The notes beneath the pieces are model-generated. The model had not been told where the DNA came from, ran no database searches, and saw nothing but the letters and a program-made list of their open reading frames with translations. 64,000 nt of DNA from Noviherbaspirillum saxi (GTDB lineage Bacteria > Pseudomonadota > Gammaproteobacteria > Burkholderiales > Burkholderiaceae_D): positions 1,302,001 to 1,366,000 of the forward strand of contig NZ_QYUO01000003.1 of NCBI RefSeq assembly GCF_003591035.1. The letters are read 5' to 3'. The position numbers and the translations under genes are program-made. Shown piece by piece: positions 41,337 to 55,353 of the stretch (its first letter is position 1; the number at the start of each line of letters is the position of its first letter).

Positions 41337-44159
41337 TCAAGATTCAACCACTGCTCGCGTCAGGATTTGGCCGCCGCCGTAACTGCCCTGCAGCGGACTT
41401 GTGCCGCCCAAGGAAAGTCGCACTGCGCAATACTTGAACTCGGGGATTTTTCCGAAGGGGTCCAGTGCTGGATTGGTCAATTTGTTAATCGCCGCTTCGT
41501 AATAACAGAACGGAACAAACACCGCACCGACAGGCGTGCCTTCATCCACCCTGGCATACAATGCGACTTCGCCGCGACGGGATGTCAACGTGACGAGGTC
41601 GCCTGCCTTGCCGCCGAGTCTTTCCAGATCGAGGGGATGGAGCAGCGCAACCGGATCCGGCTCCAGGGCATCGAGGACGGTAGCGCGACGCGTCATGCTG
41701 CCCGTGTGCCAATGCTCAAGCTGTCGCCCGGTAATCAGCACATGCGGGTACGCCGCATCCGGCTTTTCGGCTGCGGGAATAACCTCCACCGGCACGAAGC
41801 GCGCCTTCCCTGTCGCTGTCGGAAAGTGATCCGTGAACACCACCGCGTCCCCGGCATCGCCTTCTTCCGTGCAGGGATAGGTGACCGCATGCTCATCGAG
41901 CAGCCGCTCCCAGGTAATCCCTGCTATGGTCGGCATGCTCCGACGCATTTCATCGAACACGTCCGACACATCGGTATAGTGCCAGTCGAGTCCCATACGT
42001 TCGGCAATCTGCTGAATGATCCACAAATCCTGCCGAGCGTCGCCCGGCGGATCGATCGCCTGTCGTCCCAGTTGCACAAGGCGGTCCGTATTGGTGAAGG
42101 TGCCGGTCTTTTCCGGGAATGCCGAAGCGGGAAGCACAACATCAGCCAAGTAGGCCGTCTCCGTCAGGAAGATATCCTGCACGACCAAATGATCGAGCGC
42201 AGCCATCGCTTCACGTGCATGGTTGGCGTCGGGGTCGGACATTGCCGGATTTTCGCCCATGATGTACATGCCGCGAACCTTGCCTTCCTTCGCTGCATGC
42301 ATCACTTCGACGACAGTCAGGCCGGGCTCTTTGTCGAGGGTGGTTCCCCACAGGCGCTCGAACTTCATGATCGCCTCGGGGTTGTCGACGCGCTGGTAGT
42401 CCGGATACATCATGGGAATGAGTCCCGCATCGGACGCACCCTGCACATTATTCTGCCCGCGCAGCGGATGCAGCCCGGTGCCCGGCCGGCCGATTTGTCC
42501 GGTCATCAGCGCCAGCGCAATCAGGCATCGCACATTGTCCGTGCCATGGACATGCTGTGACACGCCCATGCCCCACAGGATCATGGACGCCTTCGATGTG
42601 GCATACAGGCGCGCGACATAGCGTATGGTGTCTGCATCGATACCGCAGACCGGCGCCATCAGTTCCGGACTGTACCCTTCGACGTTGTGCTTCAGTTCTT
42701 CGTAACCGATCGTGCGGGAGGCGATGAATTGTTCGTCGACCAGGCCTTCATGAACAATGACATGCATCATCGCATTGAGAAGCGCCACGTCGGTATCGGC
42801 CTTGAACTGCAGGAAGCGATGCGTCAACCGATCCATGTCGGATCGGCGTGGATCGGCAATGATGAGTTTGGTACCGTTCTTGACGGCGTTCTTGATCCAT
42901 GTCGCTGCCACGGGATGGTTCACCGTGGGATTGGCCCCGATGATGATCACGACTTCGGCTTTGGTCACGTCCATGACCGGATTCGATACCGCGCCGGAAC
43001 CGATGCCTTCCAGCAAGGCAGCAACCGAAGACGCGTGGCATAGCCGGGTGCAATGGTCGACATTATTGCTACCAAAACCGGTACGCACCAGCTTCTGGAA
43101 CAGATAAGCTTCTTCGTTGCTACCCTTGGCGGACCCAAAACCGGCAAGCGCCTTTTTACCGTAGTGATCGCGAATAGATGACAGGCGATTGCCGACAAGA
43201 TCAAGCGCTTCTTCCCAGGTCGCTTCGCGGAACACATCCATGACCCGCTCCGGATCCATGGCCATGTCGGCACGTTTCGGTACGCCAGCCCTGCGAATCA
43301 GCGGCTTGGTCAGGCGCTGCGGGTGATGCGCGTAGTCGAATCCATAGCGTCCCTTTACACATAGCCGTGCGTGGTTGGCCGGGCCGTCGCGGCCCTCGAC
43401 ATAAAGGATTTTGTTGTCCTTCACGTTGTAGGTGAGCTGACAGCCGACACCGCAATAGGGACAGACCGAATCAACTTTCTTGTCGGGTATCGAAAGTGCC
43501 GCATCGCGCGCAGGCATCAATGCGCCGGTGGGACAAGCCTGCACGCACTCGCCGCAAGCCACACAAGTCGATGCACCCATCGGGTCATCCATGTCGAACA
43601 CGATTTTCACTTCGTTTCCGCGCAGGGCCAGGCCGATGACGTCATTGACCTGTTCGTCGCGGCAAGCCCTCAGGCAACGGGTACATTGGATGCACGCATC
43701 AAGATTGACCACGATCGCGGGGTGGCTCTGGTCGGGGACAATGCGTTCACGCGGGGCAAAGCGTGGTTTGCCAAGTTCCAGTTTCGCAGCCCATTCATCC
43801 ACTTCGTTGTGGCGCGTGGTCGCGACTTCCGGCATGTCCGACTGCAGCAACTCGACCACCATTTTCTGGGCCTTCACCGCGCGTTCGCTGTTGGTGGTGA
43901 CTTTCATGCCCTTGCTTGGGTAACGGCAGCAGGATGGCGACAGTACGCGCTCGCCATTGATTTCCACCACGCAGGCGCGGCAGTTTCCTGCGGCCGCAAG
44001 TCCGTCCATGTAGCAAAGATGCGGAATCGCGATGCCTTCGCGTTTGGCGATCTGCAATAGGGTTTCGTTTTCGCGTCCGGTGACTGTTTGCCCGTTGAGC
44101 TCGAAAGTAATCGTAGCCGCATCTTGCGACAATTGCTCGCGACGAAGGATGGCGTTCAT
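41337..44159 (-). CDS. fdsA: NAD-linked formate dehydrogenase, molybdenum subunit FdsA
   Basis: The 940-residue protein has an N-terminal [2Fe-2S] domain (GNCRACVVEINGERVLSPSC). 4Fe-4S sites follow (CIQCTRCLRACRDEQ and CVACGECVQACPTGAL), then CPYCGVGC at the start of the molybdopterin domain. The active-site Cys is in RLCHASSV, so it is a cysteine and not a selenocysteine enzyme. It oxidises formate to CO2 and passes electrons to the flavin subunit encoded just upstream. ATGA overlap with that gene shows coupling. Confidence 0.95.
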   Translation of the reverse strand: MNAILRREQLSQDAATITFELNGQTVTGRENETLLQIAKREGIAIPHLCYMDGLAAAGNCRACVVEINGERVLSPSCCRYPSKGMKVTTNSERAVKAQKMVVELLQSDMPEVATTRHNEVDEWAAKLELGKPRFAPRERIVPDQSHPAIVVNLDACIQCTRCLRACRDEQVNDVIGLALRGNEVKIVFDMDDPMGASTCVACGECVQACPTGALMPARDAALSIPDKKVDSVCPYCGVGCQLTYNVKDNKILYVEGRDGPANHARLCVKGRYGFDYAHHPQRLTKPLIRRAGVPKRADMAMDPERVMDVFREATWEEALDLVGNRLSSIRDHYGKKALAGFGSAKGSNEEAYLFQKLVRTGFGSNNVDHCTRLCHASSVAALLEGIGSGAVSNPVMDVTKAEVVIIIGANPTVNHPVAATWIKNAVKNGTKLIIADPRRSDMDRLTHRFLQFKADTDVALLNAMMHVIVHEGLVDEQFIASRTIGYEELKHNVEGYSPELMAPVCGIDADTIRYVARLYATSKASMILWGMGVSQHVHGTDNVRCLIALALMTGQIGRPGTGLHPLRGQNNVQGASDAGLIPMMYPDYQRVDNPEAIMKFERLWGTTLDKEPGLTVVEVMHAAKEGKVRGMYIMGENPAMSDPDANHAREAMAALDHLVVQDIFLTETAYLADVVLPASAFPEKTGTFTNTDRLVQLGRQAIDPPGDARQDLWIIQQIAERMGLDWHYTDVSDVFDEMRRSMPTIAGITWERLLDEHAVTYPCTEEGDAGDAVVFTDHFPTATGKARFVPVEVIPAAEKPDAAYPHVLITGRQLEHWHTGSMTRRATVLDALEPDPVALLHPLDLERLGGKAGDLVTLTSRRGEVALYARVDEGTPVGAVFVPFCYYEAAINKLTNPALDPFGKIPEFKYCAVRLSLGGTSPLQGSYGGGQILTRAVVES

Positions 44160-45886
44160 GATGTCCTTGTTCCGGTTTCGGTTAACTCATGCGGAAAATA
44201 CTTGATGACGCAATCGATCGGGTTCGGCGCTGCCTGTCCCAGACCGCAGATGGATGCATCCCGCATCACTTCCGACAGGTCCGCAAGCAATGCTTGATCC
44301 CAGTGCGACTGTTGAATCAGGTCGAGGGACTTCGCGGTGCCGACGCGGCATGGCGTGCATTGTCCGCACGACTCATCGTGAAAGAATTTCGTCATGTTCC
44401 GGGCCGCGCCGACCGCGCTATCCTGCTCAGACAAAACGATGACTGCGGCGGAGCCGATAAAGCAGCCATAAGCCTGCAGCGTATCGAAGTCGAGCGGGAT
44501 GTTGTTCAGGCTCGCCGGCAAGATGCCTCCCGACGCACCGCCCGGCAGATAAGCATAGAAACGCTGACCCGCCTGCATGCCGCCACAATATTCGTCGATC
44601 AGTTCCTGAATCGTGATACCTGCGGGCGCAAGATGGACGCCGGGCTTGTTGACGCGGCCGGATACCGAGAAGGACCGCAGTCCCTTGCGGCCGTGCCGTC
44701 CATGCGAGGCAAACCAGTCGGGGCCTTTTTCAATGATCTCGCGCACCCAGTACAGGGTCTCGAAGTTATGCTCCAGCGTCGGCCGCCCGAACAAGCCGAC
44801 CTGCGCAACATAAGGCGGCCGCAAGCGCGGCATGCCCCTCTTGCCCTCGATCGATTCAATCATCGCGGATTCTTCGCCGCAAATATAGGCCCCTGCGCCG
44901 CGACGAAGATGAATCTCCGGCAGCTTGCCGGCTGGCGGATTTGCCTGCAGCTTCGCCAGTTCCTGCGTCAATAAAGCGCGGCATCCATGGTACTCGTCAC
45001 GCAAATAGATGTAGATGGCCTCGATGCCAACCGCCCATGCGGCGATCAGCATGCCTTCCAGGAAGCGATGCGGATCGCGTTCGAGATAAGTCCTGTCCTT
45101 GAAGGTGCCGGGCTCTCCTTCATCGATGTTGACTGCCATAAGACGCGGTCCCGGTTCATTGCCAACGATGCGCCACTTGCGGCCCGCAGGAAAACCGGCG
45201 CCGCCCAAGCCCCGCAACCCGGAACTCTCCATCGCTGACATCACGGCTTCGACGCTCTTGTCGCCGGACAAACAGTCGGTCAATAGCCGATAGCCGCCTT
45301 GCTGCAGATAGCCAGCGTAGTCGATGTAGCCCGAAGGCGTGTCCTGCGTTTCGCCGGCGTCGACTACGGCGCAAACTTTCTCGGTTGAGGCATGCGCAAC
45401 CGGTTTTTGCCCCACGACTGCCACCGGAGCCTGCTCGCAACGGCCGACACAAGGCGCAGCCAGTACGCGCACATCGGCGCCGAGCAGCCCCGGCAGCCGT
45501 TCCAGCAAATCCCTTGCTCCAGCCATTTCGCATGAGAGGCTCTCGCAGACGCGCACAGTCAAGGCGGGCACTGCAGCGGCATTGGTTGCGGCGTCGTCTC
45601 TTACCACGTCGAAGTGGTGATAAAAGCTCGCGACTTCATAGACTTCCGCCTGCGCCAAACGCATTTCCTGTGCGAGTGCCGCAAGGTGATGGGTCGATAG
45701 CCGGCCATAGTGGTCTTGAATCAGATGCAGGTGCTCGATCAGCAAATCCTTGCGGCGAGGCCGATCGCCAAGCAAGTGCTGCACTTCGGCAAGCAATGCC
45801 GGGTCAACCCGACGTCCTTTTGGCGCCTGCCTCTTGCGCTCGCGGGTAGGCGACATAGGCCGAATGGGGATAATTTTCTGTTCCAT
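44156..45886 (-). CDS. fdsB: Fused FdsG-FdsB diaphorase subunit of formate dehydrogenase
   Basis: I start at the ATG at 45886 (MEQKIIPIRPMSPTRERKRQ), giving 576 residues. Residues about 20-170 are NuoE/FdsG-like with a [2Fe-2S] site (CESLSC and CVGRC). Residues about 215-576 are NuoF/FdsB-like with GLRGLGGAGFPAGRKW (FMN/NADH), GAGAYICGEESAMIESIEG and the 4Fe-4S motif SCGQCTPCRVG. In Cupriavidus-type enzymes these are two proteins; the fusion resembles the Methylobacterium FDH1 beta subunit. It passes electrons to NAD. Confidence 0.93.
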   Translation of the reverse strand: MEQKIIPIRPMSPTRERKRQAPKGRRVDPALLAEVQHLLGDRPRRKDLLIEHLHLIQDHYGRLSTHHLAALAQEMRLAQAEVYEVASFYHHFDVVRDDAATNAAAVPALTVRVCESLSCEMAGARDLLERLPGLLGADVRVLAAPCVGRCEQAPVAVVGQKPVAHASTEKVCAVVDAGETQDTPSGYIDYAGYLQQGGYRLLTDCLSGDKSVEAVMSAMESSGLRGLGGAGFPAGRKWRIVGNEPGPRLMAVNIDEGEPGTFKDRTYLERDPHRFLEGMLIAAWAVGIEAIYIYLRDEYHGCRALLTQELAKLQANPPAGKLPEIHLRRGAGAYICGEESAMIESIEGKRGMPRLRPPYVAQVGLFGRPTLEHNFETLYWVREIIEKGPDWFASHGRHGRKGLRSFSVSGRVNKPGVHLAPAGITIQELIDEYCGGMQAGQRFYAYLPGGASGGILPASLNNIPLDFDTLQAYGCFIGSAAVIVLSEQDSAVGAARNMTKFFHDESCGQCTPCRVGTAKSLDLIQQSHWDQALLADLSEVMRDASICGLGQAAPNPIDCVIKYFPHELTETGTRTS

Positions 45887-46025
45887 ATATGAATGTGAAC
45901 CACCGGACTGCCTGATAAAATCGGCACCAATATATGCAAATATAAACATATATGACACCCAGCTTTATTCGAACTCTATCAGACGAATTCCGATTACGAA
46001 ATATGTAATAGTTTGCACATATATG
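45884..46025. promoter_or_regulatory. Three CATATATG boxes in the fds/regulator divergent region
   Basis: The palindrome CATATATG occurs at 45884-45891, 45947-45954 and 46018-46025; a near match, CAATATATGC, begins at 45929. The outer copies contain the start codons of fdsB and of the divergent regulator. The first two are 63 bp apart, about six helical turns. A repressor bound here would cover both translation starts and the promoters. Confidence 0.6.
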
Positions 46026-47212: not shown

Positions 47213-47293
47213 ATGACAATGGAGCATTCCCCACAGCACCTGACCGTACCATTTTTGCGCGATGAATATAAAAAGAAGCCGGAGCCCCTTTGA
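47213..47293 (+). CDS. Possible 26-residue small protein
   Basis: An ATG follows a strong GAGGAGG ribosome site and opens a short frame (MTMEHSPQHLTVPFLRDEYK, then KKPEPL and stop). It lies 78 bp after the regulator and before the convergent TonB receptor gene. The peptide is charged, with no membrane segment. It is called mainly for its ribosome site; it could also be chance. Confidence 0.35.
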   Translation: MTMEHSPQHLTVPFLRDEYKKKPEPL

Positions 47294-47326: not shown

Positions 47327-49414
47327 CTAGAAGTTCATGTTCAACGTCACCCTGAACGAGCGCGACTCAATAGGATGAAAGTGGATATCATCGGTTGACG
47401 TGCCGACCGGCTCATTGGTCAAGCGCGAAGCATAGTAATAGTCGATGGCGGAGTCCTTCCGGTTGGTCAGATTGAATCCTTCCAGTTCAATACGTGTTTT
47501 CTTGTTGATCTTGTAGCCGATGCGGCCATTGAGGGTCGCCGTGCTCTTGGAGCGCACGCTGTTGTCTTCAATCAAAGGGCGGGGGCCGAAATAGCGCAGT
47601 TGCAGGGCGCCGAAATACGGACCGATATTGTTTACCGCGAGCGCGACCGAGGCAACGCCTTCGACTGCACCCGGTATATGTCGTCCGGTCGGATCGAAAC
47701 CACGGAAACGCGCCCTCGCAAATGCGAGATCGGCATCAATGGTCAGCCAATCAGTCGGCTTATAGTAATTGTTGAACTCGAAACCGAGACGTCGGCTCGG
47801 GCGGCCCGCTTCAGTGGTTCCGGCATCACCGACGAACACCAGTTCCGAGTCGAAGTCGAGTTGGTAAACGGAAAATGAGCTTTGCAAGCCTGGAATGATC
47901 TCGGTACGGATACCTAACTCGGCGCCTTTCGAGCGAACCAGAGGCGGGACGCGATCGGCAGCCTCGCCTGAGGCCGGGTCTATCGTAATCGTGGTGCCGC
48001 GCGCATCGTTGCTATGAAATCCGGAACCGATATTGAAGTAATACTCTGTCTTGGCCCACGGCCCGAAGATCAGGCTCAGCTTGGGGCTGGCGATGCTGTC
48101 ATTTGCCTTCCCCGAGTTCGCCGGGTTATCGCTATTGATGTTGAAGCGGTAGAAGTCTTCGCGCAGACCCGCCACAGTCCTGAACGTATCGGTCCAGCGG
48201 GTATTGTTTTCGAAATAGATGCCGGCACTACTTTCAACAATATGGTCCGCCCGTGTCGTCGACAGCCTTTGCCGGGCGGCGGTGCCAAATAGTCCATTGA
48301 AAATATTGTCGTTCTGTAGCTGCAGTCCGATGGTATTGTCGGACTCGCGTCCAAACATTCTGGTCGGCCATGTATGACTTGCGTTCATCCCGGTCGTCGT
48401 GCGCTTGTCGCGTTGATTGAATTGGTCTCCGTTTACCGGGTCTACATCAAAATACGTGAAGTTGGAATACAGATCGAGTTCATTCCGGATGACATAGGCG
48501 TTCACATTTGTCGATCCGGATGCCGTGCTTTGCCGCCACGCGCTCGACAGGCTGTATCTGCGCGCATTGCCGCCATCTGTCGGATCGATCGCATCAAACC
48601 GTCCGATCAGCCCGCTCTCGACTGCGCGCCGGGGAATCTGGTCCGTGGCGTTCCAATTGCCGCGGTAAGCCATCGCAGTGACATTAAAGCCATTGGCCGT
48701 CGTGCCTTCGCTGTAGCGCAGAACGCCATTCAGCTTCCGGTAGTCGTCCGGATTGGTGAACGGTCCGTCGTTATGAAAAAGTTCCAGCGCATACAGCAGG
48801 TTACCGTTGCCGGCTTTCGGAGCATCCATCAATAAAGTCCGGCGATATCCGTTCTGGCCTATGCCTATGCTTGCCAGACCCTGGTCAAGTCTGTTCGGAT
48901 ACAAGACGCTGACGGCCCCGGCGGAAGCGAAATCACCTTCAGACGCATAGTAAGGACCTTTCTTGTAATCGAGTCGGTTCGCGAGTTCGGGAATCAGGAA
49001 GTTCAAGTCGGTCCATCCCTGGCCGTGGCCATGGCTGCGCTGATTGACCAGCATGCCGTCGACGGAGGTACGAAGGTCCGTTCCGTGATCAAGATTAAAC
49101 CCGCGGAGGTAGAACTGATTCGCTTTGCCCTCACCGCTATGCTGACTGACAATCAATCCGGGCATGGCTTCCAGTGTTTCACCTGCCCGGTAAACAGTAC
49201 GAGCCTCCAGCTGCTCCTGGGTGACGAAACCGGCATTCGCCGACTCCGCAACGCCGATCTGGCTTGTCCGTGATGCATCGACGCTTACTGCGGGCAGGAC
49301 GTTATCCTGTGCTATGGATGTCGGAGAAAAGCCGAGAATTGAAGCGCCGAAGAGGGTCGCGACGAGCGGATTATGTTTAAAAGACCGAATTGCGAATTGG
49401 TTGGAGTATTTCAT
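47327..49414 (-). CDS. TonB-dependent outer-membrane receptor
   Basis: Starting at 49414 (MKYSNQFAIRSFKHNPLVAT), the 695-residue protein has a signal sequence and a plug domain (AGETLEAMPGLIVSQHSGEG, FYLRGFNLDHGTDLRTSVDG). A 22-strand-type barrel follows, ending in SFRVTLNMNF. The loop NQRSHGHGQGW is His-rich. It is the last gene on the minus strand after cobN-exbB-DUF2149, 270 bp downstream of them, with no gene between. Its ligand is unproven; B12-riboswitch control of the neighbouring genes suggests a corrinoid or cobalt complex. Confidence 0.9.
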   Translation of the reverse strand: MKYSNQFAIRSFKHNPLVATLFGASILGFSPTSIAQDNVLPAVSVDASRTSQIGVAESANAGFVTQEQLEARTVYRAGETLEAMPGLIVSQHSGEGKANQFYLRGFNLDHGTDLRTSVDGMLVNQRSHGHGQGWTDLNFLIPELANRLDYKKGPYYASEGDFASAGAVSVLYPNRLDQGLASIGIGQNGYRRTLLMDAPKAGNGNLLYALELFHNDGPFTNPDDYRKLNGVLRYSEGTTANGFNVTAMAYRGNWNATDQIPRRAVESGLIGRFDAIDPTDGGNARRYSLSSAWRQSTASGSTNVNAYVIRNELDLYSNFTYFDVDPVNGDQFNQRDKRTTTGMNASHTWPTRMFGRESDNTIGLQLQNDNIFNGLFGTAARQRLSTTRADHIVESSAGIYFENNTRWTDTFRTVAGLREDFYRFNINSDNPANSGKANDSIASPKLSLIFGPWAKTEYYFNIGSGFHSNDARGTTITIDPASGEAADRVPPLVRSKGAELGIRTEIIPGLQSSFSVYQLDFDSELVFVGDAGTTEAGRPSRRLGFEFNNYYKPTDWLTIDADLAFARARFRGFDPTGRHIPGAVEGVASVALAVNNIGPYFGALQLRYFGPRPLIEDNSVRSKSTATLNGRIGYKINKKTRIELEGFNLTNRKDSAIDYYYASRLTNEPVGTSTDDIHFHPIESRSFRVTLNMNF

Positions 49415-49683
49415 TATTTTTACCAAAGGCAAGTTTGCAAAATTAGTCTTCCACCAAATCCGGGCAGATCATCAAATAGTACGGTGATAGAACAGCGATG
49501 GATTCAAAATACCGGACAAATTGCTATTCATTAATCAAGAGTCACGAAGATGCGTACTGTGTATGTCCTACTACTCGTCCCAGTAATCCGTCGCTCTTCA
49601 ATTTTCGGCTTACCGCCATGTTGGCGGAAGCGTGCCGGAGCACTAGACTGAAATTGAGATGGAATCCACGACTAACTGAGCAA

Positions 49684-50028
49684 TTATTTGTTCTGCTGGT
49701 TCTTAGTAAAGGGAGTAGAAGGCTCGATCAAAACGAGCTTGCCGGTTTTCGGGTCACGAAATACCTCGCCGACGCGGTCATAGCCGTTGCCTTGCTGGGT
49801 AATGCCGCTGGCCGGGCGCTGAATTTCCCGGCCCTTGTCTACTGGCTTCGGTACCTTCAATGCGTTTTGCGTGCTAGCTGCCAGTGCCGCGAGCAGGCCG
49901 CACGCAAAAACGAGCATAACATCGACCAGATTGACCAGACTTGCACGCGGGTCTTCGTCAACGTCGTCGAGGTGAGCATCGAGCCGGGAATAGAGGCGCA
50001 GACGCTTGCGCGCTTGATTGGCTTTCAT
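49684..50028 (-). CDS. DUF2149, ExbD-like membrane protein
   Basis: The 114-residue protein has a single hydrophobic helix in DPRASLVNLVDVMLVFACGLLAALA, the DUF2149 signature. As in ExbD/TolR, an Asp sits at the start of the helix (NLVDVML), where it could carry protons. A short periplasmic part follows (GNGYDRVGEVFRDPKTGKLV). It overlaps the ExbB-like gene by 4 bp. DUF2149 proteins accompany membrane-anchored CobN-like proteins in other bacteria, so it is probably the ExbD-role partner here. Confidence 0.87.
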   Translation of the reverse strand: MKANQARKRLRLYSRLDAHLDDVDEDPRASLVNLVDVMLVFACGLLAALAASTQNALKVPKPVDKGREIQRPASGITQQGNGYDRVGEVFRDPKTGKLVLIEPSTPFTKNQQNK

Positions 50029-50459
50029 TCCATCGCCTCCAGTGTTTCTTCGTACCAGCGGCGCCGCAGCTTACCGATGACCAGGCCGCCCATTCCTGCC
50101 AATAGTCCCAGCACGGTAGCGTCGAATGCGACGGTGACCGCGCTGGCCAATTGTGCGGGATCACCCTTGCCAAGCGCGGCTAATCCCGGGCCAAGCGGAA
50201 TGATGGTGGCCATCAAGCCAAGCATGGGCGGAATGCGAGCCAGCAGGTCAGCGCGTTCGAGGCGATGGCGAGCGACAGCCTGGACGCGCTGCACGTCGCC
50301 GACGGTCTTAAGCCGGGCAAGGCCGTAAAAGCGTTCCCCGACAGCGATCCCTGCTTCAATGAGGGCGATGGCGCATGCTAGCAATAGTGCAGCGAGCGCT
50401 GGCGTCAGTAGCCAGGTGACGCCTTCATGTAGCCAGGCGAAGGATAACGAATCGTTCAT
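50025..50459 (-). CDS. MotA/TolQ/ExbB-family proton channel protein
   Basis: Starting at 50459 after AAGGAG, the 144-residue protein has three hydrophobic segments and the family core LLARIPPMLGLMATIIPLGPGLAALG followed by VAFDATVLGLLAGMGGLVIG. It is shorter than typical ExbB, as is usual for the copies beside CobN-like genes. It lies 17 bp after the CobN-like gene and overlaps DUF2149. It likely forms an inner-membrane motor with DUF2149 that energises the CobN-like protein, the receptor or both. Confidence 0.88.
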   Translation of the reverse strand: MNDSLSFAWLHEGVTWLLTPALAALLLACAIALIEAGIAVGERFYGLARLKTVGDVQRVQAVARHRLERADLLARIPPMLGLMATIIPLGPGLAALGKGDPAQLASAVTVAFDATVLGLLAGMGGLVIGKLRRRWYEETLEAME

Positions 50460-50476
50460 CAAAAACTCCTTTCAGG

Positions 50477-53400
50477 TTATGAGGTTTGCCGGCCGCACCA
50501 CAGGCCGGCACTAAACAGGACAAGGCTTGCGGCAAGCAAACCGAGCAGGTTGATGGTACGACCGACAAGATCTCTTGCCGGTGCATCAGGTTCGGTCAGT
50601 TCGTAGTAACGCGGCACGGCTTCGGGAGCGGTCGGCGCATCTGTCGCTTCCTGGTATTTTGCCGGTAGGACCGCGGGGTTCGTCTTGGCGGCTTGGATCG
50701 GCGGGCGGGGTGCAACAGCGGGCTCTTCACCTCGTGATTTGGCCAGCGTCACACCGAGCGCATGCGCATCAGCGCTGTCGAGTTGCGGCGAAAGCCACTG
50801 CCACATCGGGTGGTTCGGCGCGGTATGACCGCTGCCGGGCAAGCCGTTTTTGGCAACGAGTCGGGCCAGTTCGCCTCCCATCTGCTTGATGGTGGCAGCG
50901 TCGGTATTCCAGAAACCCTTTTCAGCAGCAACCATGAAGATGGCCAGCATGTGTGCCTTGACATGCGCATTCTGTCCCTCGCCGAGGAACTGAGCGAGGC
51001 CGAGCTTATGCGCATCATCGAAGTAGACCGATTTCACCTCGTCCCAAGCCCAGTTCTTGATCAGGTCGGGACGCGTAACCTGCCAGCCCCACAGGTTTTC
51101 GAGGAATTCCGTGCCCATCGTACGGGCACCGGCATAACCGTGACCCATCAGCGGCCTGAGCCATGCGGGATTAAGGAATCGGCCACGCAGTTCGCCCAGC
51201 AGTGCGCTTGTCAGTGGCTCGACATCGGCCCGGCCGGGTTCGGCATGCTGCAGGATCAGCGCTTCCGGCGGGCGCCCGGTGCGGCCTTCGATTGCCAGCG
51301 ACAGGCCGCCGAGGTAGTCGAAGGCGTCGTTGTTGTCGAGTAAGCCATAAAGGTTGCTGGCACGGCCATGGTACGTACGAGCGATGCCGTCGAGCGCCGT
51401 GTCGAAAGCGGCGTGGCTGGCTTCGCCACTGTCATCGAGGCCATAGGCGTGACCCATCCGGTTGCGATAGACGCGGCCAATTTCGTCGCGTTCGCGCCAG
51501 GCACCTGAGCGTTCGGTCAGCCGGTTGACGCCGGTACCGTATGCGCCAGGGGCGTCGCCGAAGATACGCTGGGCGGCAGCGCGGCCGGCCTCGCTGGCTG
51601 AAAGACCGGATTGCCTGAGGGCGGCAAGACGGTTCATCCATTCGCGGGCAATCCGATTCTCGGCCGCCGCCTCATGGCCCCAGATCGCCGTCGGTACCGG
51701 ACCAAGGGCCGCGACCAATGCTTCCTTGAATTCAGGCCGCTCTTCGGACAAGCCTGCAGCGGAAGCCGCCAGCGCCATTCTGCCGGCCCGGTCGATGAGA
51801 TTGATCAGGTTGGGGTAGAGGTCGCGGAACAGGCCAGAGGTGGTGATGATCACATCGCGGCGCTTGGCCCCTGGTTTGAGGCGGACGTCGGTGACGATAC
51901 CGCGAGCATTCCATACCGGTTCAGCACCCATCATGGCGAGCGCGAAAGCGACCATGACACCTTCGTCGCGAACCGCGTCGGAAGCCCACAAAATGACACC
52001 TTCGGAGCCCTGCTCCGACCTGCTACGGGCCAGGGCCTTGCCAACCAGTTCCTCGCCAAGACGGTAACCAAGGCGGGTCGGCAGGATGTCGCCGTCCACG
52101 GCATGAAAATTACGGCCAGTCGGCAGTGAATCCGGCGAACGCAGCGGGTCGTTCCCCTTGCCGGGCGGGATATAACGCCCCTCGAGCCCGGCCAGCAGGC
52201 CACGCATTTCGAGGCGCGGTGAATCGGCTAGCATGCGGCTGATATGCGGGTCGTCGATGCCGCCTTTCCTCATCGAGTCGAGCATCAGATCCAGGGACTG
52301 CTGACTCCAGGTACGACCGAAAATGTGCAATCCGAAGGGCATGAACTTTTCCTGCAGCTTGGTCAGATAGTGGCCGACTTCGTGAGCCAGCAAGTCGTCG
52401 TCGGCCGCTTCGTAGTCGATGCCACGTACTGCCAGCACGTCCGCCATCGAGGCTTCCAATTCTGCCTTCAGGTTGAGAGCGATGACCTGTTCGCGGATGG
52501 TGCGAGCGGCCTGGGCTTTCAGCGATTCGCTGGAGGCAGCCTGAAAGCTCTCGACAAGCTGGCGCAAGGCCAGCAACTGGTCGTAGAGGGGCGTCGCGGC
52601 TAGCGGTGGCGTGAGGTGATCGACGATGACGGCCAAGCCGCGACGCTTTGCCTGGGTTCCTTCGCCGACACCATCGACGATATAGGGGTAGATACCGGGA
52701 AGGTCGGCTGCGATCAAGCTTGGATAGTCGTCGGCCGTCAGCCCTACTGCTTTGCCAGGCAGGAATTCGTAGGTGGAGTGGCGACCTACATGCACGATCG
52801 CATCGGCCTGGAAGCGGTCACGCAGCCAATGATAGAAGGCGAGATACTGGTGCGGTGGCGTGACGCTGGTATTGGCGTGCAGGAGTTCCTCATCCACTTC
52901 CCAGCCACGCGGCGGCTGCGGACCGATGAATACGTTGCCGAACGTGATACCCGGCACAAGCAATTTCCCGCTGTCGACCATTACTTTGCCCGGCGCTGCG
53001 CCCCACCCCTTCAGTCCCTCAATACCGTAACCCGTCAGCCGGCGGTTGAGTGGGGCTAGCGTAACGCAACGGTGGCTCGGCTTGTCGGCCAGGCAGGCGA
53101 GATAACCGGCTTCCAACGACTGCATGTCGCGGATTGCCTGGTCGCGTTTCGGATGATCGGCGCCGTCCACCAGATGACGCAATTCCTTTAACACCGCATC
53201 GACTCGTTTGCGACCGACCGCACGTTCGTTGGCGGCCTCGGCTTCGAGCACTTCAGCCTGCAGCCGTCCGAGCGGTCCGCCCGTCATTTCAGCCTGGACG
53301 CGAACCGGCAGCGTCGCAAACCAGCGGGCATAATCGGCTGCTTTGATCGTTTCAACGGAAGAGCTCAACTCACGTAGCGCAGCGCGGTCTTCCGGCAGAT

Positions 53401-54802
53401 TCACACCGTGAGACATGATGCGATCGAGCAGCGCTTCCGGCGACGCGGGCAAATCACCGACCGTATAGCCTGCCGCCTTAAGCGCGTGCAGCATGTCGAA
53501 CAATGACGCCGGCACATCAAGGTTGTCGGCGCCGATGTTTTGACGTCCCGGCGGGTGGTTGTAATAGATGATGGCAACGCGCTTGTCCCGGTTTGCCTTG
53601 CTGCGCAACGTCAGCCATCGATGGACGCGGGCCGCGAGGCGATCAACTTCCACTGCCAATGTGGCGGGCGGTCGCGTTTCAATGCCGGTAACCCGATCCA
53701 GCTTGCTACGTCCAAGCGCCGAGACGACAATAGGCTGGCCGATACCCTGCAGCTCAGGCAAGGCAACGCGGTACTGCACGGAGTCGGCCGGCAGTCCATC
53801 GGGTGAGAGACGCCACTGGGTCACGTTACGATCAGTTAAGCGGATAGCTTTGAGCACTGGCACATCCAGCTTTTTGAAGGCTTCAGTTACAGTCTCCCGT
53901 CCTTCGGCGGCTCCCACCACGAAATCCTGCAACACAATCAACGCTTTCGGCTTAGCTGGAGCAATCAGCTCGGGCAGGCGCTCGAGCGCGTTCCGCGAAG
54001 CGCCGCCCCAGCGGGTCAATACCTGCACACAGGGCAGGCCCCGTTGTTCGATGCGCTGGCAGATAGCTGTGGGAGCGCTGCCGTCCATGTTGGCGAGGTC
54101 GAGGACAACGACGGTTGGCATCGCCTTCAGGCCAAGGGCTTCACCGCCGCCCCAGGCTGCCGCATCGCTTAATTCCTTGTCGCCGACACGCAATCGCAGC
54201 GTCGGTTCCGGTTTCACTGCTGCCAAGGTGTGGCGCGGGTCAAGTAGATGCGCGAAGAGCGCCGCCGTATTTTCAGTGCCGCCGGCCTGCCATATTTGGC
54301 GCGCGGCTAGCCAGTGACGGGCCGTCGGGTAAGCTGTGGCGGCAGCCAGTGCTGCTGCGGGCGGGTGTTCAAGCGCAAGCTCGCGTAAGGTTTCTGGAGG
54401 GAAGTTATTCAGGCTGCCTGATTTATTCGCAGAAAGATTACGGCTCATCAGGCTTAAACCGGAGTCGCCGTTCATCGCCAGGACAGCCGCTTGCGGTCGG
54501 GCATACCGCGCCACGGCATCCTTCAGGCGCCGCGAGGGATCCCCGAAGACAGAGACCGCTAATACGATGTCGGCCTGCGCAAGCCACTGGCTGAGTTGCC
54601 TGTCGCTCGCCGCCATGAGTTGAGCCGGCGTACGCAACAGAATGCGGTCGTTCGGGTGGCTTGCGAGATGGCGGTGCGCTGCCTCGATCGCAGTCGGAGC
54701 AGCGCGTTCAGTGACGATGCCAAATAGGGTTGCCGCGTTTAGCTGCCCAGAGATCGCGCAGAAGAGGATGCAAACCAGATAGGATGCGAGTTTACTGACC
54801 AT
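50477..54802 (-). CDS. Membrane-anchored, exported CobN-family protein
   Basis: The 1441-residue protein has the CobN/Mg-chelatase H family build. The core includes NHPPGRQNIGADNLDVPASL (from about residue 415), GRHSTYEFLPGKAVGL, and WASDAVRDEGVMVAFALAMM followed by LFRDLYPNLINLIDRAG (about 940-1000). Unlike cytoplasmic CobN it has a signal peptide (LASYLVCILFCAISGQLNAA) and a C-terminal helix (NLLGLLAASLVLFSAGLWCG), so the body should face the periplasm. No cobS/cobT or chlI/chlD lies nearby. Anchored relatives such as HmuS of Bacteroides work in heme handling, and this copy sits under a B12 riboswitch. The ATG has a weak ribosome site. Confidence 0.92.
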   Translation of the reverse strand: MVSKLASYLVCILFCAISGQLNAATLFGIVTERAAPTAIEAAHRHLASHPNDRILLRTPAQLMAASDRQLSQWLAQADIVLAVSVFGDPSRRLKDAVARYARPQAAVLAMNGDSGLSLMSRNLSANKSGSLNNFPPETLRELALEHPPAAALAAATAYPTARHWLAARQIWQAGGTENTAALFAHLLDPRHTLAAVKPEPTLRLRVGDKELSDAAAWGGGEALGLKAMPTVVVLDLANMDGSAPTAICQRIEQRGLPCVQVLTRWGGASRNALERLPELIAPAKPKALIVLQDFVVGAAEGRETVTEAFKKLDVPVLKAIRLTDRNVTQWRLSPDGLPADSVQYRVALPELQGIGQPIVVSALGRSKLDRVTGIETRPPATLAVEVDRLAARVHRWLTLRSKANRDKRVAIIYYNHPPGRQNIGADNLDVPASLFDMLHALKAAGYTVGDLPASPEALLDRIMSHGVNLPEDRAALRELSSSVETIKAADYARWFATLPVRVQAEMTGGPLGRLQAEVLEAEAANERAVGRKRVDAVLKELRHLVDGADHPKRDQAIRDMQSLEAGYLACLADKPSHRCVTLAPLNRRLTGYGIEGLKGWGAAPGKVMVDSGKLLVPGITFGNVFIGPQPPRGWEVDEELLHANTSVTPPHQYLAFYHWLRDRFQADAIVHVGRHSTYEFLPGKAVGLTADDYPSLIAADLPGIYPYIVDGVGEGTQAKRRGLAVIVDHLTPPLAATPLYDQLLALRQLVESFQAASSESLKAQAARTIREQVIALNLKAELEASMADVLAVRGIDYEAADDDLLAHEVGHYLTKLQEKFMPFGLHIFGRTWSQQSLDLMLDSMRKGGIDDPHISRMLADSPRLEMRGLLAGLEGRYIPPGKGNDPLRSPDSLPTGRNFHAVDGDILPTRLGYRLGEELVGKALARSRSEQGSEGVILWASDAVRDEGVMVAFALAMMGAEPVWNARGIVTDVRLKPGAKRRDVIITTSGLFRDLYPNLINLIDRAGRMALAASAAGLSEERPEFKEALVAALGPVPTAIWGHEAAAENRIAREWMNRLAALRQSGLSASEAGRAAAQRIFGDAPGAYGTGVNRLTERSGAWRERDEIGRVYRNRMGHAYGLDDSGEASHAAFDTALDGIARTYHGRASNLYGLLDNNDAFDYLGGLSLAIEGRTGRPPEALILQHAEPGRADVEPLTSALLGELRGRFLNPAWLRPLMGHGYAGARTMGTEFLENLWGWQVTRPDLIKNWAWDEVKSVYFDDAHKLGLAQFLGEGQNAHVKAHMLAIFMVAAEKGFWNTDAATIKQMGGELARLVAKNGLPGSGHTAPNHPMWQWLSPQLDSADAHALGVTLAKSRGEEPAVAPRPPIQAAKTNPAVLPAKYQEATDAPTAPEAVPRYYELTEPDAPARDLVGRTINLLGLLAASLVLFSAGLWCGRQTS

Positions 54803-55057
54803 CAATATGGATTTTCACTATAGTCCAGCGCTGATCAGTGGTAGAAAAATCAGCGAAGAGAACTCTTGGGGAAGCTCACCATCCGTTGCAGAAGCTTTTT
54901 TGTCGAGCGTGCAAAAGATTATCGAGCGACACTAGGTTCCCTTTGATTGGCATATGCAATGCACCAGATCCAGGCGAAACTGTTCTATGAGAGGTTGCGG
55001 CACGCAGCCATCAACAGAACCTTTCCCATCACCCCGGGGAATGGTGCTACTTATGCT

Positions 55058-55231
55058 TTAGGCCGGTCTCCTGGCTTGCCATCTTCTTTCTCCGTTCCTT
55101 CCCATGCACTAGCACAGTGGAGCAATGCGGAGTCATCCGGCCTACAGTAGCGGGGGCTGCGCCGGAATGTCTGAATATCAGAGTCACCGGCTTCCCGTTT
55201 CACCCTCTCAATGAACATGAGAAAGGCACCT
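55058..55231 (-). promoter_or_regulatory. Cobalamin riboswitch
   Basis: Read on the minus strand, the aptamer shows GGTGCC near 55225, then AAACGGGAAGCCGGTGAC (55183-55200 region), the core GCGCAGCCCCCGCTACTGTA, GGGAAGG, and the B12 box AAGCCAGGAGACCGGCC (55061-55077). These are in the right order and spacing. It lies about 255 bp before the CobN-like gene and points at it, so high cobalamin should lower expression of the operon. The 255-bp segment between holds the expression platform; its terminator or sequestor could not be assigned. Confidence 0.95.
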
Positions 55232-55353
55232 AAAGTGGCCCGGAGTATAACACCAGTTGAATGGATCGCCGCCTTAAAACATGCAAATCCCGCCGGTGTT
55301 AAGATCAGCGTCATTCCCCAAAACCGGCCAAAGCCATCGCGAAGGAGACAGCA

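What the first reader, a model, noticed from the sequence alone, without database searches (positions are those of the whole stretch)
47327..55231. B12-riboswitch-controlled CobN-like / ExbB / DUF2149 / TonB-receptor envelope module
A cobalamin riboswitch, a CobN-family protein, an ExbB-like protein, a DUF2149/ExbD-like protein and a TonB receptor lie in one direction. Anchored CobN relatives with ExbB/DUF2149 partners are known in heme handling (HmuS type), and comparable gene sets in Pseudomonas are reported to respond to zinc. Control by B12 points instead to corrinoids or cobalt. The proposal is a periplasmic machine, driven by a dedicated proton channel, that handles a corrinoid or removes or inserts its metal. 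The arrangement is seen in the sequence; the function is inference.
Basis: partly seen in the sequence, partly recalled or inferred. Interest (0 to 1): 0.85.

Follow-up and report, generated by a model that had tools for sequence, protein, structure and literature searches.

The report
B12-controlled periplasmic CobN–ExbB–DUF2149 module
Many bacteria that seem only to scavenge vitamin B12-type molecules carry a B12-switched set of envelope genes for a metal-handling enzyme with its own small proton channel, probably to make scavenged B12 precursors usable before they enter the cell.

Summary
On the minus strand lie a cobalamin riboswitch, a CobN homologue with signal-like N-terminus and C-terminal anchor, a short ExbB, a DUF2149 protein and a TonB-dependent receptor. 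It is not a one-off. In 79 of 80 related named loci, and in 10 of 10 evaluable loci of an overlapping class-wide sample, a cobalamin riboswitch lies upstream on the CobN strand (four below Rfam's gathering score). In 31 of 80 loci at least two other corrinoid-uptake or salvage families lie within 10 kb. These CobN proteins form one clade, apart from HmuS, biosynthetic CobN and BchH. They lack HmuS's methionine-rich insertion and carry Asp where HmuS has His-1209, as biosynthetic CobN does. ExbB and DUF2149 keep the proton-channel residues in 88 of 88 sequences. The host, and 42 of 50 tested relatives, show no corrin-ring gene cbiC/cobH. I read it as a corrinoid-salvage variant of the HmuS–HmuU–HmuV arrangement: a periplasmic, proton-motive-force-coupled CobN that probably metallates or otherwise prepares scavenged corrinoids. 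The substrate class is well supported; reaction and direction are inference. B12-riboswitch Hmu-like operons and a 'BtuS' family are already in print, so it is a new variant, not a new kind.

The parts
55044..55248 (-). Cobalamin riboswitch aptamer (RF00174)
   Evidence: 114.9 bits, E 4.5e-28
50477..54802 (-). CobN-family protein with signal-like N-terminus and C-terminal hydrophobic anchor (ATG 54802; TTG 54805 also possible)
   Evidence: PF02514 829 bits; hydropathy of both ends
52778..52780 (-). Codon of His-676 in the GRHS motif, aligned to HmuS His-538
   Evidence: H in 89 of 89 clade members
51326..51328 (-). Codon of Asp-1160, aligned to HmuS His-1209
   Evidence: D in 89 of 89 clade members
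50025..50459 (-). Short ExbB-like protein (ATG 50459); invariant Thr-86 and Thr-116 (P0002 numbering)
   Evidence: PF01618 31 bits; hhalign to host ExbB 77.5%, E 1.9e-5; Thr in 88 of 88
49684..50028 (-). DUF2149 protein, ExbD-like membrane segment with invariant Asp-36
   Evidence: PF09919 37.5 bits; Asp in 88 of 88, aligned with host ExbD 'VDVMLV', hhalign E 5.6e-4 but probability only 30%
47327..49414 (-). TonB-dependent receptor, BtuB-like plug (ORF opens at TTG 49432, ATG 49414)
   Evidence: PF00593/PF07715; the 6 PDB sequences matched are all BtuB entries, E about 1e-6, plug region
47272..47291 (-). Terminator-like hairpin with T tract after the receptor (weak)

Best explanation
It is an adenosylcobalamin-controlled corrinoid-salvage module. 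When the cell is short of B12 the riboswitch presumably lets the operon be expressed. Corrinoids cross the outer membrane through TonB receptors. In the periplasm they are bound by an inner-membrane-anchored CobN homologue whose conformational cycle is driven by a dedicated ExbB/DUF2149 proton channel instead of the CobST ATPase. The most likely reaction is insertion of cobalt (or exchange of a wrong metal) into metal-free or mis-metallated corrinoids, before BtuFCD uptake and completion by BtuR, CobB, CobQ and the nucleotide-loop genes. Shown: anatomy, conserved B12 riboswitch, corrinoid gene context, distinct clade, conserved channel and active-site residues, no corrin-ring marker in the host. 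Inferred: periplasmic location (hydropathy only), coupling to proton flow, the substrate, and cobalt insertion as the reaction.
For: Riboswitch upstream on the CobN strand in 79 of 80 named loci: 52 within 332 nt of the CobN match, 27 further away, where the labelled genes between are on the same strand and are corrinoid genes in 26 (L039: only a receptor) (unlabelled ORFs were not judged). 8 of 8 window-type loci of the order sample and 10 of 10 evaluable of the class sample. In 31 of 80 loci two or more other corrinoid families within 10 kb, in 28 counting only families that are not transporters or aminotransferases; btuR in 27. Example L025: riboswitch, BtuB-type receptor (TIGR01779, 492 bits, cut-off 599.7), ABC ATPase, periplasmic binding protein, BtuR, CbiZ, CobN, ExbB, DUF2149, CobB. 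Asp at the HmuS His-1209 position in 89 of 89, as in the 3 biosynthetic CobN compared. Channel residues 88 of 88. Host: salvage genes behind two riboswitches, one CobN-family gene, no CbiC. Natural cobalt-free corrinoids exist (PMC6771967, passages).
Against: No biochemistry. Metal insertion outside the cytoplasm would need periplasmic cobalt; no cobalt transporter was seen as a constant neighbour (same-strand unlabelled ORFs only, few of them named). Asp at this position also occurs in 11 of 17 non-clade sequences, so it is not specific to cobalt. CobB, which would suit salvage of early corrins, is not specific: TIGR00379 matches 147 of 399 order genomes, two score groups mixed, and many of these lack the module. 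The host also has an orphan CobS/CobT-like pair and 7 of 50 relatives a CobT. 8 of 50 relatives have CbiC/CobH. A Marinobacter plasmid copy lacks the anchor and has no annotated ExbB/DUF2149 beside it, yet sits in a corrinoid operon. Recombinant HmuS is reported to turn over heme, in a paper that does not mention ExbB (PMC12583661, abstract, headings and passages), so the motor may be dispensable in that relative.
Confidence: 0.5

Rival explanations
1. PMF-driven corrinoid handler without chelation: the CobN-like protein binds corrinoids in the periplasm and the channel drives capture, ligand stripping or hand-off to BtuF or the inner membrane.
For: Near-constant riboswitch and frequent btu context. 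The module sits mainly in genomes without CbiC/CobH (42 of 50), for which complete corrinoids are the usual food. The GRHS motif differs from the GTHG, GKHG and similar motifs of the 17 other sequences compared.
Against: The metal-site positions His-676, Asp-1160 and Asp-1163 are kept in 89 of 89, which a pure carrier would not need.
Confidence: 0.25
2. De-chelatase in the HmuS direction: it removes a metal (wrong metal, or cobalt) from incoming corrinoids.
For: Closest solved structure by profile is the HmuS dechelatase (478.6 bits against 443.1 for ChlH and 428.5 for CobN). Same ExbB plus DUF2149 partners as hmu (L138).
Against: HmuS features missing: methionine-rich insertion, His-1209, His-254. 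B12 repression suits making corrinoid usable, not destroying it. Cobalt is held very tightly in corrins (established chemistry, recalled).
Confidence: 0.18
3. Metal (zinc or cobalt) acquisition like PA1922-PA1925 of P. aeruginosa, with B12 control as a proxy for cobalt need.
For: PA1922-1925 is a Zur-linked operon with receptor, CobN-like and ExbD-like genes (PMC4542158, PMC8531726, passages).
Against: B12 riboswitches are near universal in the clade (79 of 80); a cobalt proxy does not explain linkage to btuR, cobB and cbiZ. My Zur-type scan covered only 13 loci with a recalled pattern and is no real test.
Confidence: 0.05
4. Heme system (an HmuS orthologue) that happens to be under B12 control.
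For: Homology and shared partners.
Against: Separate clade (SH-aLRT 100; HmuS is a long branch there), insertion and His-1209 missing, no HmuY gene seen in the window operon; the one heme-type locus examined, L138, has no cobalamin riboswitch.
Confidence: 0.02

Closest known systems
Hmu system of Bacteroidota: HmuS heme de-chelatase with HmuU (ExbB-like) and HmuV (DUF2149)
   Same: Membrane-anchored CobN-fold protein beside an ExbB and a DUF2149 gene (L138); best PDB profile match
   Different: Cobalamin riboswitch and corrinoid neighbours; no HmuY; no methionine-rich insertion (median 115 aa with 5 Met against 325 aa with 32 Met in L138); Asp for His-1209; separate clade
CobN of the aerobic cobaltochelatase CobNST
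   Same: PF02514; Asp at the HmuS His-1209 position (3 of 3 CobN compared); corrinoid context
   Different: C-terminal anchor and signal-like N-terminus; partners are ExbB/DUF2149; the host has no CbiC/CobH; separate clade
B12-riboswitch 'Hmu-like' operons noted in Bacteroides fragilis (PMC10100974, passages)
   Same: HmuS-like gene set with receptors under a cobalamin riboswitch; those authors suggest cobalamin metabolism
   Different: Bacteroidota example noted in passing; not compared here by sequence
BtuS family (Rodionov 2003, seen only as described in PMC6460266 passages)
   Different: The name is now used for heme-linked HmuS-type proteins in B. fragilis; original paper not read
PA1922-PA1925 of P. 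aeruginosa
   Same: Receptor, CobN-like, ExbD-like genes in one operon (passages)
   Different: Zur-linked, zinc-responsive; not compared by sequence here

Membership tests
HmuS heme de-chelatase | Methionine-rich insertion in domain IV | tested here: not met
   Clade median 115 aa, 5 Met, maxima 141 aa and 8 Met (89 sequences); HmuS of L138 325 aa, 32 Met
HmuS heme de-chelatase | Heme ligand His-254 | tested here: not met
   Falls on the Glu-301 region in the HMMER alignment; that column is E 75, D 8, S 4, Q 2 of 89, but HmuS is gapped there in MAFFT, so the pairing is less sure than the absence of His
HmuS heme de-chelatase | Heme ligand Met-79 | not tested
   The N-terminal domain is not aligned with HmuS
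HmuS heme de-chelatase | His-538 and His-1209 at the cation site | tested here: not met
   His-538 kept (H676, 89 of 89); His-1209 replaced by Asp-1160 (89 of 89)
HmuS heme de-chelatase | ExbB and DUF2149 partners, membrane anchor | tested here: met
   Both partner genes in 76 of 80, other 4 end at contig ends; anchor over the hydropathy threshold in 83 of 88
Biosynthetic CobN (CobNST) | Cytosolic, no signal or anchor | tested here: not met
   C-terminal anchor 83 of 88, none in 3 CobN and 1 BchH reference. N-terminal measure over 1.6 in 71 of 88, 1.16-1.58 in the rest; it overlaps one CobN reference (L143, 1.32), so the anchor is the cleaner sign
Biosynthetic CobN (CobNST) | Part of de novo corrin synthesis | tested here: not met
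   No CbiC/CobH in host nor in 42 of 50 relatives, completeness of those genomes not told
Biosynthetic CobN (CobNST) | CobS and CobT partners | tested here: inconclusive
   Not in the window operon; host has an orphan CobS/CobT-like pair on another contig; CobT in 7 of 50 relatives
ExbB/ExbD-type proton channels | Channel Thr residues in ExbB and membrane Asp in ExbD | tested here: met
   Thr-86, Thr-116 and Asp-36 in 88 of 88; profile match of DUF2149 to ExbD weak; role of these residues recalled
Cobalamin riboswitch regulon | RF00174 upstream on the coding strand | tested here: met
   Window 114.9 bits; 79 of 80 relatives by R1 or Rfam
Cobaltochelatase activity | Inserts cobalt into a corrin | not testable with these tools
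   needs enzyme assay

The most novel reading that the evidence does not exclude
A proton-motive-force-powered cobaltochelatase in the periplasm that lets B12-auxotrophic bacteria use cobalt-free or mis-metallated corrinoids from the environment, with an ExbB/ExbD-like motor replacing the AAA+ ATPase of CobNST.
Probability: 0.3. Interest if true: 0.85.

Novelty: new variant of a known kind. Interest (0 to 1): 0.6.

Why it matters
PF02514 proteins outside CobN, ChlH and HmuS are largely unassigned; [quoted passage not shown] Here one clade gets a substrate class from regulation and context, and a residue signature (GRHS plus NND-x-FD) that separates it from the 17 other sequences compared. If the reaction is metallation, it would be metal insertion into a tetrapyrrole outside the cytoplasm, powered by ion flow rather than ATP, and would mean that scavengers can use cobalt-free corrinoids. 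It also gives a testable role for HmuU and HmuV: DUF2149 looks like a shortened ExbD, while HmuV is described as without homology to any known family (PMC13227078, passages).

Tried and rejected
Heme (HmuS orthologue) rejected: clade, insertion, ligands, regulation. Biosynthetic CobN rejected: anchored, and host has no CbiC. CobB as a partner specific to the module rejected: TIGR00379 hits 147 of 399 order genomes; all 8 module genomes have it but so do many without. A Zur-type palindrome scan of 13 loci gave only hits with 5 to 7 mismatches and showed nothing. A clustering of unlabelled same-strand ORFs found no further constant neighbour; the widest clusters were a PepSY_TM and a Tim44-like protein, 9 loci each. 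Leader folding showed no unusual stability (z -0.75), so whether the switch acts on transcription or translation is open. No structure model was obtained: the machine was busy at every try.

Rows dropped and limits: 296 relatives were found and only the best 80 kept, which favours close kin. L085 has no riboswitch but only 1.2 kb upstream. Whole-genome checks used 50 of the 80 loci. The R1 riboswitch model was trained on 21 riboswitches from these loci and the host, so strong R1 hits are partly circular; Rfam was run on 13 of the 80 loci, mainly the weak R1 hits plus L085 and L094: 12 of 13 matched upstream of CobN, L092 (29.8 bits) and L094 (25.1) below the gathering score. Of the class sample's 22 matching genomes one is the host, 20 were fetched and G740 was left out; L137 had no module genes, L130 was too short; L120 and L121 of the distant type are short too. 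The CobN alignment kept ORFs of at least 1200 aa (88 clade sequences plus the Marinobacter one; L082, L086, L108, L130 and the distant L120, L121 dropped); the tree used 47 of 106, with a quick search, and HmuS is a long branch in it. Neighbour labels are BLAST hits to host, L025, L028 and L029 proteins with cut-offs of 1e-8 for BtuB and BtuF; reference proteins for BtuB, BtuC, BtuD, BtuF, CobB and CobQ were checked against NCBIfam: receptors best match TIGR01779 but stay below its cut-off, CobB and CobQ pass a cut-off, the host permease and one binding protein best match BtuC and BtuF models below their cut-offs, the ATPase best matches a heme transporter model, the L025 BtuF-like protein matches none.

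Literature: searches. I read passages, not whole papers, of PMC12583661 (also outline and section 23), PMC13227078, PMC6460266, PMC10100974, PMC4542158, PMC8531726, PMC10434189, PMC8620254, PMC2864759, PMC2667541, PMC4465626, PMC10846266, PMC6771967. PMC8620254 cites an earlier speculation that chelatase genes beside a cobalamin receptor in Chlorobaculum tepidum insert cobalt into acquired cobalamin. Rodionov 2003 was not read. In these searches I saw no paper describing this proteobacterial module; subscription papers are mostly not held.
Full report
What is there. The minus strand carries a cobalamin riboswitch (55248-55044, RF00174, 114.9 bits), then a 1442-residue CobN-family protein, a 145-residue ExbB-like protein, a 114-residue DUF2149 protein and a TonB-dependent receptor. 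The CobN-like protein starts with a hydrophobic signal-like stretch and ends with a hydrophobic anchor (hydropathy only). The receptor's matches among solved structures are BtuB entries, in the plug (E about 1e-6). Flanking genes look unrelated: oxidoreductase subunits at 41337-45958 and a dehydrogenase-like and an EamA transporter gene beyond 55354.

The host. The genome has 6.5 Mb in 3 contigs and four cobalamin riboswitches. In a tree of 47 sequences the nearest CobN relatives are those of Noviherbaspirillum malthae and Dechloromonas hankyongensis. Two riboswitches precede corrinoid genes: DBI_PRT (CobT), CobS and a histidine phosphatase; and a B12-type TonB receptor, FecCD permease, ABC ATPase, BtuR, CobB, CobU, CobD, an aminotransferase, two periplasmic binding proteins and CobQ. 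The genome has one CobN-family gene, the one in the window, and no CbiC/CobH. So it lacks a marker of corrin-ring synthesis and has a broad salvage set.

Distribution. Of 399 genomes of the order, 14 have a match to the CobN protein at E 1e-50 or better; 8 of them, host included, match over nearly the full length at 49% identity or more, and all 8 have ExbB and DUF2149 beside it. A scan of one genome per species with an alignment of these eight (A1) gave 296 relatives, the best 80 kept: Massilia, Duganella and kin, Dechloromonas, Zoogloea, Methylobacillus and kin, Lysobacter, Steroidobacter, Pseudomonas, Azotobacter, Methylophaga, marine gammaproteobacteria and one Nitrospirales MAG. ExbB and DUF2149 were both found in 76 of 80; the other four end at a contig end.

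Regulation. With a covariance model made from 21 riboswitches and Rfam, a riboswitch lies upstream on the CobN strand in 79 of 80 loci: in 52 within 332 nt of the CobN match, in 27 further off, with the labelled genes between all on the same strand. L085 has only 1.2 kb upstream and none was found. A second sample, drawn class-wide by DUF2149, had matches in 22 of 369 genomes. The 20 fetched loci fall in two sorts plus one without module genes. Eleven are of the window type (CobN 45-50% identical); one is too short, and 10 of 10 others have a riboswitch, two of them (L126, 22.4 bits; L127, 30.1 bits) below Rfam's gathering score but 109 and 135 nt before the gene. Eight are of a distant type (CobN about 25-32% identical, DUF2149 near 100 bits) and 0 of 8 show one. 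A heme-type locus from Prevotella nigrescens has none (L138). The two samples overlap (see limits).

Neighbours. In 31 of 80 loci two or more other corrinoid families lie within 10 kb, in 28 when transporters and aminotransferases are not counted. BtuB-type receptors were labelled in 32, BtuR in 27, CobB in 22, CbiZ in 5. In L025 the order is riboswitch, BtuB-type receptor, ABC ATPase, periplasmic binding protein, BtuR, CbiZ, CobN, ExbB, DUF2149, CobB. In others, such as L097, L101, L107 and L112, the next gene lies on the other strand, so the riboswitch would control just the three genes. The window's receptor type lies beside the module in 12 loci by BLAST (L114 is a weaker thirteenth), in five of them (L041, L042, L046, L058, L076) right behind a riboswitch of its own.

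Type of protein. In the tree the 30 clade members, including a Marinobacter plasmid copy, are on one side of a branch with support 100, apart from HmuS, three biosynthetic CobN, BchH and the distant types. By profile the nearest solved structure is HmuS (478.6 bits), then ChlH (443.1) and CobN (428.5). Aligned with HmuS, His-538 is kept as His-676 in 89 of 89; His-1209 is Asp-1160 in 89 of 89, and the 3 biosynthetic CobN also have Asp; Glu-1212 is Asp-1163 in 89 of 89. The motif GTHG, GKHG or similar of the other kinds is GRHS in 89 of 89 and in none of 17 others. The methionine-rich insertion of HmuS is absent (HmuS residue roles from PMC12583661 passages). Asp at position 1160 is not unique: 11 of 17 non-clade sequences have it.

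Motor. ExbB keeps Thr-86 and Thr-116, and DUF2149 keeps Asp-36, in 88 of 88 sequences. They align with Thr residues of the host's ExbB (hhalign 77.5%, E 1.9e-5) and with the ExbD membrane Asp (E 5.6e-4, probability 30%). That these residues carry protons in ExbB/ExbD is recalled knowledge. This suggests a working, reduced proton channel; coupling to the CobN protein is inference.

Who carries it. 42 of 50 tested relatives show no CbiC/CobH and 8 have it (some are MAGs and completeness was not told). All 50 have a PF02514 protein; 34 of 50 show just three matched pieces, the number that the single gene gives in the host, though in one of these (G429) the listed pieces belong to two genes and the list was cut. 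A CobT of the ATP-driven chelatase is in 7 of 50; the host has an orphan CobS/CobT-like pair elsewhere. So CobST is not a constant partner, but it cannot be excluded in the host.

Mechanism. B12 repression would mean that the module is wanted when cobalamin is short, mostly in cells that cannot build the ring. A CobN fold with a kept metal site, outside the cytoplasm, beside corrinoid uptake and adenosylation genes, is best read as acting on incoming corrinoids. Cobalt insertion into metal-free or mis-metallated corrinoids is my first choice; natural cobalt-free corrinoids are known from purple sulfur bacteria grown without cobalt (PMC6771967 passages). A carrier or ligand-stripping role and metal removal are the main rivals.

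What was known. HmuS is a membrane-bound heme de-chelatase (PMC12583661), and hmu operons hold ExbB and DUF2149 genes (PMC13227078, PMC10434189; passages). B12-riboswitch Hmu-like operons were noted in Bacteroides fragilis (PMC10100974, passages). A BtuS family for salvage was proposed in 2003 (as told in PMC6460266). Cobalt insertion into acquired cobalamin was speculated for Chlorobaculum (as told in PMC8620254). New here, as far as these searches show, are the proteobacterial clade, its near-constant B12 control, its residue signature, the ExbD-like reading of DUF2149 and the contrast with the distant type.

Noticed in passing
L007 1501-6601 (host contig C1, about 1737457-1742557): A strong cobalamin riboswitch (116.1 bits) precedes an aldehyde dehydrogenase, acyl-CoA dehydrogenase and two enoyl-CoA hydratase-type genes, a set that looks like valine catabolism rather than a corrinoid operon.
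   Followed up: partly
L149 4671-7606 (host contig C2): Orphan CobS/CobT-like pair (CobS_N plus AAA_5; CobT plus CobT_C) in a genome whose only CobN-family protein is the anchored one.
   Followed up: partly
L141 8007-12209 (Marinobacter sp. M3C plasmid): A clade member without C-terminal anchor and without annotated ExbB/DUF2149 beside it, in a riboswitch-preceded gene row with receptor, cobalamin-binding protein, permease, ATPase, CobB, CobO, CobQ and BluB.
   Followed up: partly
L032 7789-15456: A different anchored CobN type (about 36% identical in part) also follows a cobalamin riboswitch (90.4 bits), TonB receptor and ExbB, so B12 control of anchored CobN may have a second lineage.
   Followed up: partly
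L127 12347-12477: A TPP riboswitch (74.2 bits) stands between the three-gene module and a downstream TonB receptor-like gene.
   Followed up: no
L092, L094, L126, L127 upstream of CobN: Divergent cobalamin riboswitches scoring 22-30 bits, below Rfam's gathering score, at the expected place; L094 has a second, strong one (104.4 bits) on the other strand.
   Followed up: partly
L038 15350-19398 and Massilia-type loci such as L084: A TonB receptor and a PepSY_TM-type protein follow the module, in L038 behind a second riboswitch; PepSY_TM was checked by Pfam in L038 only, the receptor in L084.
   Followed up: no
L143 3374-12515 (Spirosoma oryzicola plasmid): CobB, CobN without anchor, a putative cobaltochelatase and CobQ lie together near a TonB receptor, a possible cytosolic counterpart of the salvage idea.
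   Followed up: no
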